A stretch of 64,000 bases of DNA, taken from assembly GCA_903877165.1 (NCBI GenBank), contig CAIRCU010000034.1:1-64000 (forward strand), given 5' to 3'. A model generated the notes under the pieces. That model made no database searches. It was not told the origin of the DNA and saw only the letters and a list, made by a program, of their open reading frames with translations. How positions within the stretch are numbered: the stretch's first letter is position 1; every line of letters starts with the position of its first letter. Source of the stretch: Methanobacteriota archaeon (GTDB lineage: Archaea; Thermoplasmatota; E2; DHVEG-1). The position numbers and the translations under genes are program-made. Shown one piece after another: positions 6,536 to 17,082 of this stretch.

Positions 6536-6790
6536 TTATCCTCCGGAGACGACGGGCGGGGCGATCGCCACCTGGTCGCTGTGCTGAAGCGGGGCGTCAT
6601 GGGCGGACAGGACACCATTCTTCGAGACCATCATGTGCCGGGCGTCTTTAGCAAACACGGGGAACAGCTTCACAAATGCGTCAAGAACATCCTGAATGGA
6701 TTTCTCTTCCTCAAGCTGCAGAGTGATGGTTTCGCTGCGGGCTGCGTCCCGGTAGCGTCCATAGAGTCGTATGGTGAAGTGGAGGGTCAT
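6536..6790 (-). CDS. Ubiquitin-like sulfur carrier (MoaD/ThiS/SAMP family)
   Basis: An 84-residue beta-grasp protein ending in Val-Val-Ser-Gly-Gly. The C-terminal diglycine is the site adenylated by an E1-like enzyme and then thiocarboxylated or conjugated. Family members donate sulfur to molybdopterin, thiamine or tRNA thiolation, or act as archaeal protein modifiers (SAMPs). The ATG at 6790 overlaps the stop of the E1-like gene by four bases, so the two are translationally coupled. No molybdopterin or thiamine genes are nearby, so the pathway served is open. Confidence 0.85.
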   Translation of the reverse strand: MTLHFTIRLYGRYRDAARSETITLQLEEEKSIQDVLDAFVKLFPVFAKDARHMMVSKNGVLSAHDAPLQHSDQVAIAPPVVSGG

Positions 6791-7512
6791 CGGTGTATAT
6801 TCCTCCCGCAGCAGGTGCATTTGGGGTTGCGTTTCACGTTAAGAGTCTCGCAGCGCTGCTGCTCCGCATCGTAGATGATCAGGCCCGATGGTGATTTTCC
6901 TTGGAGGATGCGGATGGCTTCGACGACCTGGAACGATGCGGTGATCTGCGGCAGGTATCCATGGATAGGGAAGGCATCGGTCTTGGGTTCCGGCAACGTA
7001 TGGGCGAGGCAGTGGAAGCAGGGGGTCTTGCCTGGGATGATTCCGAGGACCATCCCGCAGGTCTCGTACACCCCGGCGTACACCCAGGGGATCTTGAGGT
7101 CGACGGCCGTCTGGTTGATGAGCTGGCGCAGAGGCAGTGAGTCCGTGCCGTCCAGGACGATGGAGGCTTTGTCCAGGAGCGTGATGATGTTCTCTTTGGT
7201 GACCGTGATGTTGTGGTCGTAGACGGCGACGTCATGGTTCACCGTGCGGAGGTGTGCGGCGAGGACTTCGCTTTTCGGTTTGCCGATGTCGGCTTCTGAG
7301 AAGACCGCGGTGCGGTGCAGGTTGGTGAGGTCCACGGTGTCGTGGTCGATGAGGTCAATCGTGCCGATGCCCATGCGGACGAGGGTGCTTGCGCTGTGGC
7401 TGCCGAGTCCGCCGCAGCCGATGACGACGGCATGGGCTTTGTGCAGGCATCGTTGTCCTTCCGCTCCGAAGGTTTTGACCAGGGTTTGTCGGTGGTACCG
7501 CGATGGATTCAT
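6787..7512 (-). CDS. E1-like adenylyltransferase (MoeB/ThiF/UbaA family)
   Basis: A 241-residue enzyme that activates the C-terminal glycine of a ubiquitin-like protein with ATP. It shows the nucleotide loop GCGGLGS (residues 32-38), the acidic DHDTVDLTNLHR segment that positions ATP, the DGTDSLPLR loop, and two zinc-binding CxxC pairs (Cys165/168 and Cys232/235). It has no C-terminal rhodanese domain. The downstream overlapping gene encodes the matching diglycine protein, which strongly supports the pairing. It heads the probable three-gene unit E1, carrier, thioredoxin/CcdA protein. Confidence 0.9.
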   Translation of the reverse strand: MNPSRYHRQTLVKTFGAEGQRCLHKAHAVVIGCGGLGSHSASTLVRMGIGTIDLIDHDTVDLTNLHRTAVFSEADIGKPKSEVLAAHLRTVNHDVAVYDHNITVTKENIITLLDKASIVLDGTDSLPLRQLINQTAVDLKIPWVYAGVYETCGMVLGIIPGKTPCFHCLAHTLPEPKTDAFPIHGYLPQITASFQVVEAIRILQGKSPSGLIIYDAEQQRCETLNVKRNPKCTCCGRNIHR

Positions 7513-7597
7513 AGGCCGCGTCTTCTTTGGGTATGGTAACTGAGCAGGCTGTTTTTATAGGTTATCCCAACTGGGGAAAAGAAAAGGATTGTCGTCG

Positions 7598-8326
7598 TTA
7601 TTGGCTTGGTGGTTTCTGTGGGAGTTCGCGGGCGGGGACGCCGCCGTAGATTTTGCCTTTCTGTAGAATCTGGTGTTTGGTGACGAGTGCGCCGGCTGCG
7701 ACCGTGACGTCGTCTTCGAGGACCACGCCTGGCATGATGATGGCGCCGGCGCCGATGACGCAGTTGTCGCCGACTGTGACGGTGGCCATCTCGATGGTCT
7801 CGTGCTGCATGTTGTGGATGTGGCCGTAGATGATTGCGTATTCCCCCATGGTGACGTTGCTGCCGAAGGTGGTGATGCAGGGGTCCTTGATGACGCCGCC
7901 GACGAGGGTGTTGGCACCGATCTTCATGCCGAGGAGCCGGTAGTACGCTGTCCTGGTCCTAGCGAGGGGGAGGATTTCAAAGATCTTGCGGCCTGGGGTG
8001 TAGAGGCTGCAGACGATGATCCATTTGAAGGCGTCTTTGTCGTGGTAGTTGTAGACGTGCAGGCCGGGGGCGTAGGTGATGTGGAAGATGCGGACGATGC
8101 AGGCGGGGATGAGGGTGATGCCTTGGATCGTGATGATGATGCCGATGTAGACGACGGCTGGGAGGAGCAGGATGTGCCACCAGATGGTGAGGTTGAGGTA
8201 GTGCCAGGCGAGGACGCCGAGGAGCAGGGGCGGCAGGAGGCCGACGTAGAAAATAAGGAGCAGGATGAGCGGGAGGAGCAGCTTGTTGATGGAAAAGGGA
8301 TCTTTGGTGGTGCTGGTTCCTGGCAT
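7598..8326 (-). CDS. Membrane protein with C-terminal left-handed beta-helix (hexapeptide) domain
   Basis: A 242-residue protein with two or three hydrophobic segments in residues 14-85 and hexapeptide repeats of the acyltransferase type in residues about 130-225. Repeats such as IGANTLVGGVI, VTVGDNCVIGAGAIIMPGVVLEDDVTVAAGALV and the ending GVPAR are typical of left-handed beta-helix acetyl/acyltransferases. The arrangement resembles the C-terminal transferase region of Pls/Pos-type proteins, but no adenylation domain is present. A role in cell-envelope glycan or lipid acylation is plausible but not shown. Confidence 0.75.
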   Translation of the reverse strand: MPGTSTTKDPFSINKLLLPLILLLIFYVGLLPPLLLGVLAWHYLNLTIWWHILLLPAVVYIGIIITIQGITLIPACIVRIFHITYAPGLHVYNYHDKDAFKWIIVCSLYTPGRKIFEILPLARTRTAYYRLLGMKIGANTLVGGVIKDPCITTFGSNVTMGEYAIIYGHIHNMQHETIEMATVTVGDNCVIGAGAIIMPGVVLEDDVTVAAGALVTKHQILQKGKIYGGVPARELPQKPPSQ

Positions 8327-9743: not shown

Positions 9744-12344
9744 CTATCTTGAAGTCACTCCCAAAACGAAGAACAGTAGTACGAAGCTGTTCATTGAATT
9801 TGAGATATCCCCGACCCGAACGGTTATCGTGGTCCTCCCAAAAGAGAACGGTATGGCCCGTATTTTCACTTCGCCGCCCATGGGAATATCAACGGTACCG
9901 GATGTGTGGCCAAGGATGAACATAGAAGACGGTTTGATGTCCCAACTCACGCCCGTCAAGTCGGTTGTTCCTGTGTTTGTAATAGTGGCCGTGATGCCGA
10001 AACCGCCTTTGATATCGACCTGGATGATCTTGTGAATGGTGAAGGTCACGTTTTTCCAATGCTCTATATTGCCAGCACGGTCCACAGAGTAATAGACGAT
10101 GGTATGGTCACCATCGAGAGAAATGATGAACGGAGACGAATATGTCTTGAATGAGCCATTGTCCACTTGATACATCGTGTAGTTGATCCCGGAATAATCA
10201 TCGGTTGCATTCAAGGTGACTTTCACATTACTCGTGTATACATCTCCTTCCATGGTGCCGTTCAGCGTGCAGGTGGTGACAGGAGGGACGGTCTCGCGGG
10301 GGGCTTTTATCACTTGGGCCGGGTCTGCAAAGAGCGTGCACCCTTCAATGACGGCCCTCCAGCCTTGTGCTGCACTTGCCCATGTCCAATTGATCGTCGG
10401 AGCCATCTCGTCTTTGGAGAACGCATGGGCCCTCCCTAGTTGCCAGTTCTCAGGGCCTCCCGAGTTATTCGTCATATCAAAGAAATAGTCCCAGAAGCAT
10501 TTCTGCTGGAGAGCACTAGAACAATTGGTGTCATCAATGGATCCCATGCCGTAGCAAGTGTTGTAGACACAGCCGAAGGCGAGAGAGGTGTTAGATCGGA
10601 ACAACATGGAGTCTAAGACTCCGTCATCTGAGGCATCGAAATCGCCACAATGACAGCCGTAATCGGTGATGAAAAAGGGATGGGTGTTGTGATAGAGACT
10701 CTCCCAATCGTAGTCATACACATCCAGGGACATGTGACAGTCGGCGTGGGCGACTCCGCTCAGTAATGTTACCTGATCATTGTTGATTGCATCACGGAGC
10801 CCATACACAGAGGCATGGATTGTTCCTCCTTTCCATCCGGGGTTTGGGCCTACCTCAGCAGTCCATCTCACTGAGAGGTTGAAGGGTATATGCTGATTGG
10901 TCTGGTTCCACGTCTCAAACCCATATTGGAAGCCGAGCCAGGCCGGGTATTGCCCATGGCTGCCGGGGCGGGGGCCAAGCCAGTCGTCTGTCCCCTTAAT
11001 CGCGCTATAGTCAACGGAATCATCACCCCTAGCATAGCCGAGGGCACCAGCGTAGAACGCAGCGTTATCCAGAACCAAGGGATCAGTTTCGTTAGCATAT
11101 TTGAAGCTCTTGGTCATCCAGTTGGAGACATCCTGGGGTGTATCGCACGTGAGACGTCCGATAAACAATTCAGAGTACAGATCAAAACCGTTATCGTCTG
11201 CTTCACCCCAAAGACTGTCATGGTCAGCGTTGAAGGTTTTATCGAGGTTGCTCCAGTAGATGTCGGCGTCGACGTCATATTCACCGCTGTACGCCATGTC
11301 TCGTGCTGGGATCCACTCTCCGTCCCCACCAATCAGCACATACTGGGTACCCCAATCTTGATAGGCATCCTTACAAAATTCACGAATGTGGGCTTGAGTA
11401 TCGTTGAAGAGAGGGTCCGAGTTGTAGTAGCCGGAGCAGGCATTAATGGCTTCCACGGTCACCTTCGCAGGATAGAGCTGGTTGTGAGCATTCATAAGAC
11501 TTTCCCAATTGTAGGGCGTGGAGTCGTTGGTGTCCCAATAGTCAAGGCCGTTTTGGGTCGTCGTAATGATAACATATGCATGAGATTGGCTCGGGTCACA
11601 GAGCCCGCCAGGATAGTCAATTGGCGTAAAGGCTACTGTGCGATAGCTTGCGACAACATCGGGGTTACTCACAAGTTTCGACACATAGTTTTCATCGGCG
11701 GCCGAGTTGCGGAAGAAGGGATTCATCTCAGCAGAGCGTAAGGAAAGCGATACAGTAAGTTGTGGGGAATACTGCAGCCTGCCTTGGCTTGGAATGTACC
11801 GGACTGGCGTCAGGGCAAAGGAGACAATCGTGTAGCCGCGGCAATAATCTATCGAAAAATGACCATCGAAAGTACTTTGTGGATATGGATTGCTGCTGAG
11901 GTAGAGCGTCTCATTAACGTCAAGCCCGGTGGGTGCAACATCACCTATAGGAACTTCCTGTTGGTAAGGGATAATCGGTGTCGAAAAAAGGTCATAGGTT
12001 GTATGAAGCGGTACGGTTTGTCCGGTGACTGTAACATGATCAACGGTCGTATGGGGCGGTACTGCAAGTATTATGAAAGATACCGGAGTGGTGGGTCCGC
12101 CAATGTCAGCGCTTAAGGAGATGCCACCAGGCATAGAAATGCGGGTATATTCTTGGTTCCCGAGTCGTTGGACTTCGAGCGTCGGTTCCGGGAAGTCAAA
12201 TGTATACGTGAGTGTATTTGGTGTTTGATTGTCATCTTTTTTTGCAAAAACTGTAGCGGATGTCGTGCACATGATGAGACATAAAACGAAAACCACGAGT
12301 TGGGTGAACGGCTTTCTTTTCACAGAAGCATGATACGTTGCCAT
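9744..12344 (-). CDS. Secreted C25-family (gingipain-type) cysteine protease with C-terminal surface module
   Basis: An 866-residue secreted protein. After a signal peptide (residues about 14-34) comes a beta-rich propeptide-like region. The caspase-fold catalytic domain occupies about residues 250-680. The likely dyad is His533 (in GVAHADCH; His537 is an alternative) and Cys564 (in TDYGCHCGDFD), 31 residues apart as in gingipains. Residues about 690-770 form an Ig-like segment with the DYSGINYTMYQVDNG and DRAGNIE motifs typical of such repeats. The last about 95 residues form a module shared with the protein at 27442-28416. Base composition is more AT-rich than neighbours, and the protein has many NxT/NxS sites. 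Extracellular protein degradation is likely. Confidence 0.85.
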   Translation of the reverse strand: MATYHASVKRKPFTQLVVFVLCLIMCTTSATVFAKKDDNQTPNTLTYTFDFPEPTLEVQRLGNQEYTRISMPGGISLSADIGGPTTPVSFIILAVPPHTTVDHVTVTGQTVPLHTTYDLFSTPIIPYQQEVPIGDVAPTGLDVNETLYLSSNPYPQSTFDGHFSIDYCRGYTIVSFALTPVRYIPSQGRLQYSPQLTVSLSLRSAEMNPFFRNSAADENYVSKLVSNPDVVASYRTVAFTPIDYPGGLCDPSQSHAYVIITTTQNGLDYWDTNDSTPYNWESLMNAHNQLYPAKVTVEAINACSGYYNSDPLFNDTQAHIREFCKDAYQDWGTQYVLIGGDGEWIPARDMAYSGEYDVDADIYWSNLDKTFNADHDSLWGEADDNGFDLYSELFIGRLTCDTPQDVSNWMTKSFKYANETDPLVLDNAAFYAGALGYARGDDSVDYSAIKGTDDWLGPRPGSHGQYPAWLGFQYGFETWNQTNQHIPFNLSVRWTAEVGPNPGWKGGTIHASVYGLRDAINNDQVTLLSGVAHADCHMSLDVYDYDWESLYHNTHPFFITDYGCHCGDFDASDDGVLDSMLFRSNTSLAFGCVYNTCYGMGSIDDTNCSSALQQKCFWDYFFDMTNNSGGPENWQLGRAHAFSKDEMAPTINWTWASAAQGWRAVIEGCTLFADPAQVIKAPRETVPPVTTCTLNGTMEGDVYTSNVKVTLNATDDYSGINYTMYQVDNGSFKTYSSPFIISLDGDHTIVYYSVDRAGNIEHWKNVTFTIHKIIQVDIKGGFGITATITNTGTTDLTGVSWDIKPSSMFILGHTSGTVDIPMGGEVKIRAIPFSFGRTTITVRVGDISNSMNSFVLLFFVLGVTSR

Positions 12345-13228: not shown

Positions 13229-14308
13229 CTATGACTGCAAGGACCGCGTCCCGTTCGTGTTGATGACCAGTTGCTTCGAGGAGACGACCTGGTAGTCCTG
13301 CACGATCGCAAACGAGGCGGGCGGCTCCACGTTCTCGGTGAATACGATGCCGGTGAGCGACGCGGCGAGCGAATCGTTGTTCCCCATGTCCTGGAAGACG
13401 CGGACATGGAAGCAATCCTCGACGCCGAAGTTCTGCTCAATGTCGGTCTGCACGGAATTACAAATACACGAGCATTCCACGGGGATCCAGCCGCCGATGC
13501 CGATGCCGGTGCCGACGAAGACCTCCACCCACGCATGGGCGACGGCCTGCATCGGCTGTGTATCACTAATCAGATAACCGCGGATGAACCTAGCGGGGAT
13601 GCCGACCGAGCGGCACAACGAGACATAGAGGAACGACAGGTCGTCGCAGTCCCCGGTCTTCAGCGCAAGCGTCATCGCTGCGGGCTGCACGCCCTCAGTT
13701 GCATGCGTCTGATAATGCACGTTCTCCTTCAGCCATTTGAACAGGGCTTTCGCGAGGAGCAGTGCGTTCGTCGACGAGGTGTTCAACACGCTATCCGCGA
13801 TGGCTTTGATCTGCGGGTCCGCTGGGTCGATGTACCGGATGCTCTCGTTGCTCTGGACGCGCGTGTAGCGGTTGACGTAGTCCTCTGCGTTTGCACGCAG
13901 CTGCGAAAGAGACAGCGCGCCCTTGCCCATGAGATCAGGAGAGAGGTACGTCTGGGCGTTCACCTCGGTTTGCACCCCGAGGGTGTACTGTTGCGGGTCT
14001 TTGCCGCTGAGATTCCAGGTGACGACCGTGTTGTTCGCCCGCTCCCGTTGCGTCCCCCCCGTGGTGTTGAGGATTGTGTAATGGCTAGTGCCGATGAGGA
14101 CTTCAGGAAGATCGCTGGTGTACCTCACCTCGTAGTGGCCGTTCCCAGTGATATTAACGTAGTAGCCGTAGCGGAGCGTGTACTGGACTTGGATGGGATG
14201 GGTGACGTACGTGGTCGTCTGCCCACCAGGTAGAAACGACGTGCATCCTGACAAACCTATGATGAGGGTCAGGACGATGCATACGGTCAGGATCGAATGA
14301 GGGCGCAT
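13229..14308 (-). CDS. Transglutaminase-like lipoprotein
   Basis: About 359 residues from the ATG at 14308, one base after the HerA-like gene stop; an ATG at 14335 would overlap that gene. The N-terminus is a lipoprotein signal with lipobox Leu-Ser-Gly-Cys, so the protein is probably lipid-anchored outside the membrane. The transglutaminase core has Cys221 in KTGDCDDLSFLYVSLCRSVG and His258 in AVAHAWVEVF, then GGWIPVEC with the expected acidic residue. Enzymatic activity (protease or crosslinker) is not determined. It is packed tightly between a HerA-like ATPase and a methyltransferase, an unexpected pairing. Confidence 0.85.
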   Translation of the reverse strand: MRPHSILTVCIVLTLIIGLSGCTSFLPGGQTTTYVTHPIQVQYTLRYGYYVNITGNGHYEVRYTSDLPEVLIGTSHYTILNTTGGTQRERANNTVVTWNLSGKDPQQYTLGVQTEVNAQTYLSPDLMGKGALSLSQLRANAEDYVNRYTRVQSNESIRYIDPADPQIKAIADSVLNTSSTNALLLAKALFKWLKENVHYQTHATEGVQPAAMTLALKTGDCDDLSFLYVSLCRSVGIPARFIRGYLISDTQPMQAVAHAWVEVFVGTGIGIGGWIPVECSCICNSVQTDIEQNFGVEDCFHVRVFQDMGNNDSLAASLTGIVFTENVEPPASFAIVQDYQVVSSKQLVINTNGTRSLQS

Positions 14309-14309
14309 C

Positions 14310-16166
14310 TTACGCGGATCTCCGTAGTAACCCATGTTTGTGCAGTGGCCCGGGTGCCGGTGCGTGAGGCTGCTGCGCGAGCCAGTGCTGACATCCGGAG
14401 TTCATGGGGCAGTGGGCGCAGGAGGGTGAGGCCTCATGGCAGACGGTCTTGCCGAGCTGCGCGAGGCTGTCGAGGTACTTGAAGACGTTCTCCTGCATCT
14501 CCTCGGCTTCTGCGCTGAGGAACTGGATTGTCTGATCCGGTGTCTTGGTCTTGACCCAGCCGAGGCGGGTGGCGACGCGATGGACGAGCATAGCTTTTTC
14601 TGTGGAGTGTTTCTGCGCTTCTTTCTGCTGCTGCGACGGCAATGGGGGAGCTTTTGGTAGCTTGGGTTTGTAGTCTGAGGGGTCGATGTCCTTGAAGACG
14701 GTGACGGATTTACCGCCGTGGTCCGTCTCCCTGGTGCGGATCTCGACGAGGATCGGGACCTGAATCGACGCGCCAGAGATGAGGGCGACGCCGATGGGCA
14801 GCCGCTGGATCTCGTCATACGTCTGGCTGGTGAGGCCTTCGACGGACTGGATGATGGCCTTGAGGTCGTTAGGGTTCGTGACCTTCAGGATGATGTTCGT
14901 GTTGCACTGTGATATAATATTCTTATCGATCTTGGCGGGACGCTGGCTTACGACGCACAGTCCCATGCCGAACTTGCGGCCTTCGCTGGCGACCGTGCGC
15001 AGCATCTGACTGCTGACGGCATGGCCGATGCCGTGCTCCGGGCAGTAGTTGTGCGCCTCTTCGACGACGAAGAGGAACGGCGGGATCTTACCAGCCTTGC
15101 GGTCCTTGAAGAGTTCTTCGGTGAGGCGGGCAACGACCACGTCCTGGATGTCCGGGGGCACGCCGCGCATGTTGATAATCGAGCATTTCCCTTTCTGCAC
15201 GAGTTCGCCTGCCTCGGTGCCTTTGTCGCTGAACACGCCTATGGAGTCTAGGGATTCGAGGCTGGCGATGACGTTCCAGCGGGCGTTGCTCTTGGTGTGC
15301 TCCACGGCTTCGATGATGTCCCGGATGGTGTAGTTCTCCTTGAACTCCTTGAGTTCCTTAATGGTCTGGTACAGAACCGCTATCTGTGGTCCGGAGAGCT
15401 TCGCCTGTAAAAGTTCGAGGATGTCGCGGCCTTCAAGGCAGAGGCCGTTGAGCGTGAGATGCTGAGTACCGTCCTCAGAATTCAGAGGAGAATAGGCGGT
15501 GATCTGGCTGGCGTAGTCGTTGGCTTTGACGCCGAACTTCTCCATGTTTTTTTCGTCTTTCTTGTCCTTGTTCGGCTTGCCTAGCGAGGTGTACTCGCCG
15601 TGCGTGTCGATGATGACTAAAGGGATTTTCTTCTTGAGGAGTTCTTCGATGAGGACGCCGCAGGCGTAGCTCTTGCCTCCACCGGTCTTGGCGAGGATGC
15701 AGATGTGTTTCTGCACGAGTGAGTCGATGTTGAGGTAGACGGGCAGGTCATGGCCTTTGAGGAGTCCGAGGTACGCGCCGTTCTGTTTCTCCGCCTGCAG
15801 TCCGAGCACATGGCGGATGAGGTCCTCGTTCGCGAGCGTAATCTGCGCGCCGGCTTCGAACGGGCTGCGCGGTGCCTGGAGATGGCCTTCCTTGTCGCGG
15901 AAGCCGATGACCTCGGCATAGGCGCTCACGTCGCTTTTAATGGGCGGCAGGGTGCCGTTGGTTTTAATCGTGATTGCGTCCTCGAACTTCAGGTCTGAGT
16001 AGCCTTTGATGTCCATGACCTGGGCGAGGACGTAGCCTTCCTCGTGTGGCGCGGCGACGTAGTCGAACTTCCGCAGGTTGTGGCCGTTGACCGTGAAGTT
16101 GAACTTGGTCGAGCCGACGTCTCCATAAATGAGACCGATGGCGTCGATTTTTTGTTGCTGTGGCAT
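14310..16166 (-). CDS. HerA-like (FtsK/VirB4-type) ATPase with C-terminal four-cysteine motif
   Basis: A 618-residue protein. Residues about 1-100 fit an N-terminal HAS-barrel-like region. The ATPase core has Walker A AKTGGGKS (Lys165) and Walker B FLFVVEEAHNY (Glu369-Glu370), plus the SQRPAKID sensor-like segment and a QCNTNIILKV motif found in HerA proteins. HerA pumps DNA during end resection, usually with NurA nuclease, but no nurA, mre11 or rad50 is in the window. The C-terminus has Cys576, 583, 586, 592 spaced x6-x2-x5, the pattern of the iron-sulfur loop in endonuclease III. It lies downstream of dph5 by 40 bases and just upstream of the lipoprotein gene. Confidence 0.88.
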   Translation of the reverse strand: MPQQQKIDAIGLIYGDVGSTKFNFTVNGHNLRKFDYVAAPHEEGYVLAQVMDIKGYSDLKFEDAITIKTNGTLPPIKSDVSAYAEVIGFRDKEGHLQAPRSPFEAGAQITLANEDLIRHVLGLQAEKQNGAYLGLLKGHDLPVYLNIDSLVQKHICILAKTGGGKSYACGVLIEELLKKKIPLVIIDTHGEYTSLGKPNKDKKDEKNMEKFGVKANDYASQITAYSPLNSEDGTQHLTLNGLCLEGRDILELLQAKLSGPQIAVLYQTIKELKEFKENYTIRDIIEAVEHTKSNARWNVIASLESLDSIGVFSDKGTEAGELVQKGKCSIINMRGVPPDIQDVVVARLTEELFKDRKAGKIPPFLFVVEEAHNYCPEHGIGHAVSSQMLRTVASEGRKFGMGLCVVSQRPAKIDKNIISQCNTNIILKVTNPNDLKAIIQSVEGLTSQTYDEIQRLPIGVALISGASIQVPILVEIRTRETDHGGKSVTVFKDIDPSDYKPKLPKAPPLPSQQQKEAQKHSTEKAMLVHRVATRLGWVKTKTPDQTIQFLSAEAEEMQENVFKYLDSLAQLGKTVCHEASPSCAHCPMNSGCQHWLAQQPHAPAPGPLHKHGLLRRSA

Positions 16167-16206: not shown

Positions 16207-17022
16207 TTATAGTTTATGTAAGAGTCTGCCGAGGTCGGGCGGCAGCCCGGCGAAGGCGGTGAGCGCGTCGACTTCGATGAAGTGCAGGGTGCCGGGGATG
16301 ACGAGGATGTGCAGCGCGGGTCCGAAGTCCCGGTTCACTAGGGCTTTGATGCGGTCTGCGGCCACGATTGGGTTTTCCGATCCTGCGCGGGCGACGACGC
16401 AGGCGAGCGTGTCGTCGGTAATCGCCGTATCGTTGAGGTGTTGTCCCATCTCCAGGATGAGGCGCAGGCCTTCGGTCGCGGTCATGTAACGGTTGTTTTC
16501 CGCTTGGATGTCGAGGAACACGAGGGTGTGCAGCCCGCTTTTAAGGTTCGCGGCGATGACGTCGTAGGGACTGGTGGGGAAGAAGTTCTTCTGTGGAAAC
16601 GCCAGGGTCGTACTACGGCCGAACTTGTAGGTCTGCAGCCCGAGGATCCCTGGTGCGGCGGTGAGGATGCTGCTGGCGTGGATGATGCGGGTGGGGATAC
16701 CTGCTTTGGCGGCGCGCAGGCGCAGGTCCACGTGCGTGGTGGCGGTCATCGGGTCGCCGCAGACGAGCAGTGCTATGTGTTTGGTCCGTGCTGCGGCGAG
16801 GATTTCGTCCGCGCCTTCGGTCTGTGCGCGGGAGAGGATCGTGATGGGTTTGCCGATCTGCTGTTCGAAGGCATGGTGGTCGAAGCTGCCGAGCCTTGAG
16901 GTGTAGAATTCAGCGTAGACTGCCTCGGATTCATGCAGTTCGTGCAGGCCGCGCAGTGAGAGGTCGTGGGTGCCGTAGAGGCCCAGGCCGATGAACGTGA
17001 GTGAACCAATGGTTTGTGTCAT
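16207..17022 (-). CDS. dph5: Diphthine synthase (diphthamide biosynthesis methyltransferase)
   Basis: A 271-residue tetrapyrrole-methylase-fold enzyme that methylates the modified histidine of elongation factor 2 during diphthamide synthesis, using SAM. Diagnostic features are FIGLGLYGTHDLSLRGL at the N-terminus, the LLVCGDPMTATTHVDLRLRA motif, IIHASSILTAAPGILGLQTYKFGR and the FLDIQAENNRYMTATEG block. The start is the ATG at 17022; a TATA-like box lies about 50 bases further upstream (17073-17082). Length and motifs match the archaeal family. Confidence 0.95.
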   Translation of the reverse strand: MTQTIGSLTFIGLGLYGTHDLSLRGLHELHESEAVYAEFYTSRLGSFDHHAFEQQIGKPITILSRAQTEGADEILAAARTKHIALLVCGDPMTATTHVDLRLRAAKAGIPTRIIHASSILTAAPGILGLQTYKFGRSTTLAFPQKNFFPTSPYDVIAANLKSGLHTLVFLDIQAENNRYMTATEGLRLILEMGQHLNDTAITDDTLACVVARAGSENPIVAADRIKALVNRDFGPALHILVIPGTLHFIEVDALTAFAGLPPDLGRLLHKL

Positions 17023-17072
17023 GGGAACGTCTCGCAGACGAAATCGTGTGTAAGTGAAATATTTCGAAAACA

Positions 17073-17082
17073 TTTAAAAGTA
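17073..17082 (-). promoter_or_regulatory. TATA-like box for dph5
   Basis: The minus strand reads CTTTTAAATG here, about 50 bases before the dph5 start. The region also holds the start of the gap leading to the small plus-strand gene at 17258. Evidence is composition and position only. Confidence 0.45.

What the first reader, a model, noticed from the sequence alone, without database searches (positions are those of the whole stretch)
14391..14441. Endonuclease III-like iron-sulfur motif at the end of a HerA-like ATPase
Seen: the C-terminus holds Cys576-x6-Cys583-x2-Cys586-x5-Cys592, exactly the spacing of the FCL cluster loop of endonuclease III and MutY. Known: in those glycosylases this loop binds 4Fe-4S and contacts DNA. 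HerA-like ATPases normally lack it. Inferred: the ATPase may carry an iron-sulfur cluster as a DNA contact or redox sensor. It could also be a zinc site. No NurA partner is seen nearby.
Basis: partly seen in the sequence, partly recalled or inferred. Interest (0 to 1): 0.7.

Follow-up and report, generated by a model that had tools for sequence, protein, structure and literature searches.

The report
HerA-type ATPase with captured iron-sulfur domain
In a group of uncultured sediment archaea, a ring-forming DNA-motor protein has been permanently fused to the iron-sulfur half of a DNA-repair enzyme, without that enzyme's catalytic half, so the cluster can be studied on its own in a protein that is not a glycosylase.

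Summary
The motif is real and exactly where stated: Cys576-x6-Cys583-x2-Cys586-x5-Cys592 of a 618-aa HerA/DUF87 ATPase (ORF 14310-16166, minus strand). It is more than a motif. Residues ~523-598 are homologous to the C-terminal iron-sulfur domain of endonuclease III/MutY (hhalign 98.7%, E 4.7e-16; AlphaFold pLDDT ~91), joined to the ATPase by a disordered linker. The catalytic Asp, its His/Asn neighbour, the helix-hairpin-helix and catalytic Lys are gone. Residues whose mutation empties the cluster of human MUTYH (R241, R245, C290, P295, C306) are invariant in all 42 aligned tails, favouring [4Fe-4S] over zinc. The fusion occurs in 49 of 52 genomes of the order (Thermoprofundales/MBG-D) and four further families of the class, with a single origin and no observed loss; outgroup orthologues end before it. 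The FCL loop is acidic, unlike EndoIII, so "DNA contact" is weakened; a tethered non-catalytic cluster domain (redox sensing or partner docking) is more likely. The missing NurA is explained: NurA pairs with a different HerA paralogue. No held paper describes this fusion. New variant of a known kind; metal and function untested.

The parts
14310..16166 (-). HerA/DUF87-type ATPase with C-terminal EndoIII-type iron-sulfur domain, 618 aa
   Evidence: orthologues of the same architecture in 45 fetched loci and 49/52 genomes of the order
15972..16139 (-). HAS-barrel-like N-terminal region (residues 10-65)
   Evidence: Pfam PF09378 19.4 bits, below its 25.2 cut-off; 23.8 bits in L117
15114..15770 (-). 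DUF87 / HerA central ATPase domain (residues 133-351)
   Evidence: PF01935 1.3e-36
15669..15692 (-). Walker A (AKTGGGKS, residues 159-166)
   Evidence: T161, G162, G164, K165, S166 invariant in 53 aligned homologues
15051..15074 (-). Walker B (LFVVEEAH, residues 365-372)
   Evidence: V368-N373 invariant in alignment A2
14610..14711 (-). flexible linker (residues 486-519)
   Evidence: pLDDT < 50 over 486-519 in the full-length AlphaFold model; variable length and Pro-rich in homologues
14367..14600 (-). EndoIII/MutY-type iron-sulfur domain (residues 523-600): three helices, FCL, short helix
   Evidence: pLDDT ~91; hhalign 98.65%, E 4.7e-16 to EndoIII alignment A4; Foldseek top 46 PDB hits all MutY/EndoIII/NTHL1/ROS1 glycosylases
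14592..14594 (-). A525, position of the catalytic Asp of EndoIII/MutY (lost; Ala in 38 of 42)
   Evidence: alignment to EndoIII D162 of L083 and D139 of 9nzc; column counts
14577..14579 (-). R530, equivalent of MUTYH Arg241 (H-bonds cluster Cys), invariant 42/42
14565..14567 (-). R534, equivalent of MUTYH Arg245, invariant 42/42
14391..14441 (-). FCL: C576-x6-C583-x2-C586-x5-C592, with P581 (equivalent of MUTYH Pro295)
   Evidence: four Cys and P581 invariant in 42/42 tails
16207..17073 (-). conserved upstream neighbour: diphthine synthase Dph5 (context, not part of the function claimed)
   Evidence: TIGR00522 1.6e-93; next to the fusion across the order
13229..14335 (-). conserved downstream neighbour: transglutaminase-like lipoprotein, overlapping the ATPase stop by 26 nt (context)
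   Evidence: PF01841 2.6e-20; cluster found in 44 loci

Best explanation
This is a HerA-like (FtsK/HerA superfamily) DNA-motor ATPase that acquired, in one gene-fusion event in a common ancestor of part of its class, the iron-sulfur domain of an endonuclease III-type glycosylase; the catalytic half was left out. Shown by computation: the homology, the loss of the glycosylase catalytic residues, the retention of every testable residue known to hold the cluster, single origin and conservation. Inferred with high probability (~0.85): the tail binds a [4Fe-4S] cluster. Inferred with moderate probability (~0.45): because HerA proteins form hexameric rings, six cluster domains hang on ~34-residue flexible linkers from the ring and serve as a non-catalytic sensor/docking module, in which the state of the cluster (bound/lost, oxidised/reduced) changes how the motor engages DNA or a partner, rather than as a base-excising active site.
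For: ATPase: PF01935 1.3e-36; Foldseek best hit SsoHerA 4d2i, E 1.2e-36; Walker motifs invariant. Tail homology: hhalign 98.65%, E 4.7e-16; 38% identity over 64 aa to the genome's own EndoIII; tail profile hits ROS1, EndoIII and MutY in the PDB; Foldseek of the tail alone hits this family first, though E is only 0.065 for so short a domain. Catalysis lost: the alignment starts at EndoIII D139 / L083 D162, which is Ala in 38/42 tails; the His/Asn position is variable; the upstream sequence is linker, so no HhH or Lys. Cluster residues kept: MUTYH R241W, R245H/C, C290W, P295L and C306W lose [4Fe-4S], while N238S, R241Q, V246F and R309C keep it (PMC12000561); R530, R534, C576, P581 and C592 are all invariant and are five of only nine invariant columns of the 42-row alignment. 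Single gain: one change on the tree when the contig-cut row is not counted. Linker pLDDT <50, domain ~91. Found in anaerobic sediment archaea (PMC6461988).
Against: No metal has been measured. In EndoIII the iron-sulfur domain also includes an N-terminal helix (own knowledge), and MUTYH W103, also needed for the cluster and lying upstream of the transferred segment, has no counterpart in the tail. No partner, substrate or phenotype is known; the neighbours (Dph5, transglutaminase lipoprotein) give no functional lead. Hexamer formation is assumed from HerA homologues.
Confidence: 0.72

Rival explanations
1. The four cysteines form a structural zinc site in a shrunken EndoIII-like domain; there is no cluster.
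For: Four-Cys sites often bind zinc; the tail lacks the N-terminal helix (own knowledge) and a counterpart of MUTYH W103.
Against: The FCL spacing and its second-shell residues (R530, R534, P581) are kept invariant although catalysis is gone; the same residues are needed for [4Fe-4S] in MUTYH. No zinc-binding relative of this fold was found.
Confidence: 0.1
2. The tail is a DNA-gripping module that works as in EndoIII: the FCL loop and helix bind phosphates and help load or hold the HerA ring on DNA.
For: Homology to a DNA-binding domain; R530 matches MUTYH R241, which also touches the DNA backbone; most tails have a net positive charge; 26 of 42 have Lys or Arg at position 585 inside the FCL.
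Against: The loop between Cys1 and Cys2 is negative in 34/42 tails and positive in one, whereas all EndoIII-type sequences examined are 0 to +3. The HhH motif is missing.
Confidence: 0.25
3. The tail is an active glycosylase or AP lyase coupled to the motor.
For: Homology to EndoIII/MutY.
Against: Catalytic Asp, catalytic Lys and HhH are absent; the genome has separate EndoIII/MutY-type genes.
Confidence: 0.01
4. The tail is an inert leftover of a fortuitous fusion that persists by descent.
For: Single origin; no functional link found.
Against: Four Cys, two Arg and one Pro are invariant across seven family-level groups with tail identity down to 19%, while the linker is unconserved.
Confidence: 0.05
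5. The fusion is an assembly or frame artefact.
For: Only metagenome-assembled genomes carry it here.
Against: Same architecture in about 50 assemblies, including single-contig chromosomes CP070798, CP070724 and CP070836.
Confidence: 0.01

Closest known systems
HerA, the NurA-associated DNA translocase of archaea (NF040819; PDB 4d2i, 9x1l/9x1m)
   Same: HAS barrel (weak), RecA/DUF87 core, Walker motifs, fold (Foldseek E 1.2e-36)
   Different: Far below the equivalog cut-off (157.6 vs 970 bits); no NurA partner; a separate NurA-linked HerA paralogue exists in sister families; carries the iron-sulfur tail
Untailed euryarchaeal HerA-like orthologues (Methanomassiliicoccales, families f4/f5, Archaeoglobaceae)
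   Same: Same orthologous ATPase core, about 41-52% identical
   Different: End at about residue 490; no cysteine domain. Woesearchaeal ones carry another extension
Endonuclease III / MutY / MIG HhH glycosylases with FCL
   Same: C-terminal iron-sulfur domain, FCL spacing, cluster-supporting Arg/Pro residues
   Different: Tail lacks the six-helix barrel, HhH, catalytic Lys and Asp; FCL loop acidic instead of neutral/basic
Plant ROS1/DME demethylases
   Same: EndoIII-type FCL domain in a large rearranged protein; best PDB hit of the tail profile (2.1e-9)
   Different: ROS1 keeps a split but complete glycosylase core (PMC9266487); the tail has only the cluster part
Iron-sulfur helicases (XPD, DinG)
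   Same: A DNA motor carrying a [4Fe-4S] cluster (own knowledge)
   Different: Unrelated cluster domain in an SF2 helicase; here an FtsK/HerA-type motor with an EndoIII-type domain at the C-terminus

Membership tests
HerA (NurA-associated translocase) | DUF87/RecA-type core with Walker A and B | tested here: met
   PF01935 1.3e-36; Walker residues invariant
HerA (NurA-associated translocase) | N-terminal HAS barrel | tested here: inconclusive
   19.4 bits, below the 25.2 cut-off; Foldseek aligns most of the SsoHerA chain
HerA (NurA-associated translocase) | NCBIfam HerA equivalog score | tested here: not met
   157.6 vs 970 bits; the model also exceeds its cut-off in none of the control genomes, so it is very strict
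HerA (NurA-associated translocase) | partner nuclease NurA in the genome or operon | tested here: not met
   None in the own genome; 1 of 53 tailed genomes has NurA, beside a different HerA paralogue
HerA (NurA-associated translocase) | hexameric ring, dsDNA translocation | not testable with these tools
   needs purified protein
EndoIII/MutY FCL iron-sulfur domain | C-x6-C-x2-C-x5-C | tested here: met
   window and 40 of 42 aligned tails (L038 and L040 have x5 in the first gap; all keep four Cys)
EndoIII/MutY FCL iron-sulfur domain | homology of the preceding helices | tested here: met
   hhalign 98.65%; Foldseek
EndoIII/MutY FCL iron-sulfur domain | cluster-retention residues (MUTYH R241, R245, P295) | tested here: met
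   R530, R534, P581 invariant 42/42 (PMC12000561)
EndoIII/MutY FCL iron-sulfur domain | bound [4Fe-4S] | not testable with these tools
   needs spectroscopy
HhH-GPD DNA glycosylase | helix-hairpin-helix and catalytic Lys | tested here: not met
   absent; only linker precedes the domain
HhH-GPD DNA glycosylase | catalytic Asp | tested here: not met
   A525; Ala in 38/42
Anti-phage HerA systems (PADLOC) | system-level partner nuclease or effector gene | tested here: inconclusive
   HerA models match at up to 165 bits; the conserved neighbours, Dph5 and a transglutaminase lipoprotein, are not known defence effectors

The most novel reading that the evidence does not exclude
A ring-shaped FtsK/HerA-type DNA motor gated by an EndoIII-type [4Fe-4S] domain: six tethered clusters report redox state or DNA charge transport to the motor, making this a natural separation of the iron-sulfur function of EndoIII/MutY from base excision.
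Probability: 0.3. Interest if true: 0.8.

Novelty: new variant of a known kind. Interest (0 to 1): 0.58.

Why it matters
What the [4Fe-4S] cluster of EndoIII and MutY does (structure, redox sensing, allostery to the active site) has been argued for decades, and is hard to settle because cluster and catalysis sit in one enzyme. Here evolution has separated the cluster domain at about the domain boundary, discarded the active site, kept the cluster-holding residues and fixed the result on a DNA motor throughout an order of archaea. That indicates the domain can be kept for something other than base excision, and gives a clean protein in which to test what it does.

Tried and rejected
NurA fusion-replacement hypothesis: the tail and NurA are almost mutually exclusive (1 of 53 tailed vs 18 of 21 untailed genomes have NurA; Fisher p 3e-13), but this is confounded by one clade, and NurA sits beside another HerA paralogue, so replacement is not claimed. 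Tail supplied as a separate downstream ORF in untailed homologues (L063, L069, where tblastn ran past the stop): checked, it is an unrelated small ORF. Tailed-looking ORFs in family f14: ordinary EndoIII with read-through in the frame. Tail in the phylum of the Archaeoglobus locus: of 295 genomes, 50 match, all listed frames 203-410 aa, i.e. glycosylase-sized. Tail in viruses: none. Rad50 zinc hook in 12 relatives: none over the cut-off, but the test rings in only 3 of 14 controls, so it is uninformative. Pfam gives only weak hits to the tail members (EndIII_4Fe-2S best 0.028); the profile comparisons carry the case. Literature: eight searches found no HerA/EndoIII iron-sulfur fusion.

Full report
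1. Observation. The 618-aa ORF 14310-16166 (minus strand) is a HerA-like ATPase: DUF87 1.3e-36, HerA_C just over its cut-off, weak HAS barrel; the best fold match of the AlphaFold model is SsoHerA, 4d2i, E 1.2e-36. C576, C583, C586 and C592 lie at 14391-14441 as stated. No shuffle in 20,000 reproduced the spacing.

2. It is a domain, not a motif. NCBIfam MutY matches residues 529-598 at 4e-7 and Nth matches at 1e-3. A profile of 46 tails (A1) finds ROS1 (2e-9), EndoIII (1.9e-7) and MutY in the PDB. Profile-profile comparison with 19 EndoIII-type glycosylases of the same phylum (A4) gives 98.65% and E 4.7e-16 over 66 columns. The full-length AlphaFold model has a confident ATPase core, a disordered linker 486-519 and a confident tail 521-600 with helices 523-535, 543-556, 561-574 and 593-598; the tail folded alone is the same and its first 46 Foldseek hits are all MutY, EndoIII, NTHL1 or ROS1 structures (E 0.065 at best, because the domain is short).

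3. What was transferred. The match begins at the catalytic Asp of EndoIII (D139 in 9nzc, D162 in the genome's own EndoIII L083), where the tails have Ala in 38 of 42. The six-helix barrel with HhH and catalytic Lys is absent. From own knowledge, EndoIII consists of that barrel plus an iron-sulfur domain made of the N-terminal helix and the C-terminal part; the fusion took the C-terminal part almost exactly. The genome still has a complete EndoIII with these features.

4. Cluster or zinc? PMC12000561 measured metal in variants of human MUTYH: R241W, R245H/C, C290W, P295L and C306W lose [4Fe-4S]; N238S, R241Q, V246F and R309C keep it; D236 is catalytic and linked to the cluster through Asn238 (His in EndoIII) and Arg241. 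By spacing these map to R530, R534, C576, P581, C592 (all invariant, 42/42) and to L527, L535, W595 and A525 (variable or lost). The 42-row alignment has only nine invariant columns: R530, V531, R534, G536, C576, P581, C583, C586, C592. Cluster-holding residues are kept and catalytic ones are lost, as expected from selection for the cluster itself. The mapping rests on the alignment to EndoIII and on spacing; it was not done on a superposed MUTYH structure.

5. DNA contact? The loop between the first two Cys has net charge -3 to -1 in 34 of 42 tails, 0 in 7 and +1 in one; in the EndoIII-type sequences examined it is 0 to +3.

6. Distribution and origin. Of 80 loci found in GTDB genomes, 45 carry the tail in the same frame, plus L011 where undetermined bases break the gene. 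In the phylum sample, 49 of 52 genomes of the window's order have it; the other three (G190, G205, G243) are 65-74% complete and show no query-type HerA at all. Loci L003, L008, L033 and L048 are the Thermoprofundales (MBG-D) MAGs 3300003432D, SM1-50, SG8-52-3 and M9B1D of PMC6461988, which identifies the order. Four more families of the class have it with long linkers and diverged tails (G063, G073, G126, G211). Families f4 and f5, Methanomassiliicoccales and Archaeoglobaceae have the ATPase without it; Woesearchaeota have another extension. On a tree of the ATPase core (75 rows, tail excluded) the tailed proteins need one change of state when the row cut by a contig end (G149) is not counted; the clade has SH-aLRT 93 in a quick tree. 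So: one gain, no observed loss.

7. NurA. The own genome has none. In the class, NurA is found in f4, f5 and f9, but beside a second, distant HerA of about 510-540 aa. The window protein belongs to another HerA-like lineage; its genomes mostly lack the HerA-NurA pair. Its score against the HerA equivalog model is far under the cut-off. It probably works like a HerA motor, as far as the core shows, but should not be filed as the NurA-partner HerA.

8. Context. Dph5 upstream and a transglutaminase-like lipoprotein downstream are conserved through the order; they do not suggest a DNA function.

9. Mechanism. Shown by computation: architecture, homology, lost catalysis, kept cluster residues, single origin. 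Inferred: [4Fe-4S] binding (~0.85); hexamer with six tethered clusters (from HerA); sensor/docking role (~0.45) over DNA grip (~0.25), zinc (~0.1) or inert leftover (~0.05).

10. Novelty. No paper found in the held library describes it. Both parts are known families, the combination is not; hence a new variant of a known kind.

Noticed in passing
L085:1345-2196 (+): The window genome's MutY-like glycosylase ends in a region where the four FCL cysteines are missing (...QVTARRTNIPPKTRQSKFEGSS...): a glycosylase that lacks the cluster motif in the same genome whose ATPase gained one.
   Followed up: no
13229-14335 (-) and orthologues in about 44 loci: A transglutaminase-like lipoprotein gene overlaps the end of the ATPase gene by 26 nt and is its conserved neighbour across the order.
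   Followed up: partly
9744-12344 (-): Secreted gingipain-type Peptidase_C25 with propeptide (2.7e-15), in line with the extracellular peptidases reported for MBG-D archaea.
   Followed up: no
class-wide; e.g. L176, L177, L182: The NurA-linked HerA paralogue and NurA are absent from almost the whole order but present in sister families: a clade-wide absence of the HerA-NurA pair.
   Followed up: partly
L074, L076, L078, L079, L081: Woesearchaeal orthologues of the ATPase carry a different C-terminal extension of roughly 140-200 aa, so the C-terminus of this HerA family has been extended more than once.
   Followed up: no
L069 about 7458-7750 (+), L063 about 6620-6930 (+): A small conserved ORF directly follows the untailed ATPase in Methanomassiliicoccales-type genomes (DUF357-like from memory, not tested).
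   Followed up: no
L002:1291-2601 (+): The only other DUF87 protein found in the window's genome (436 aa, 1.4e-6), distant from HerA; role unknown.
   Followed up: no
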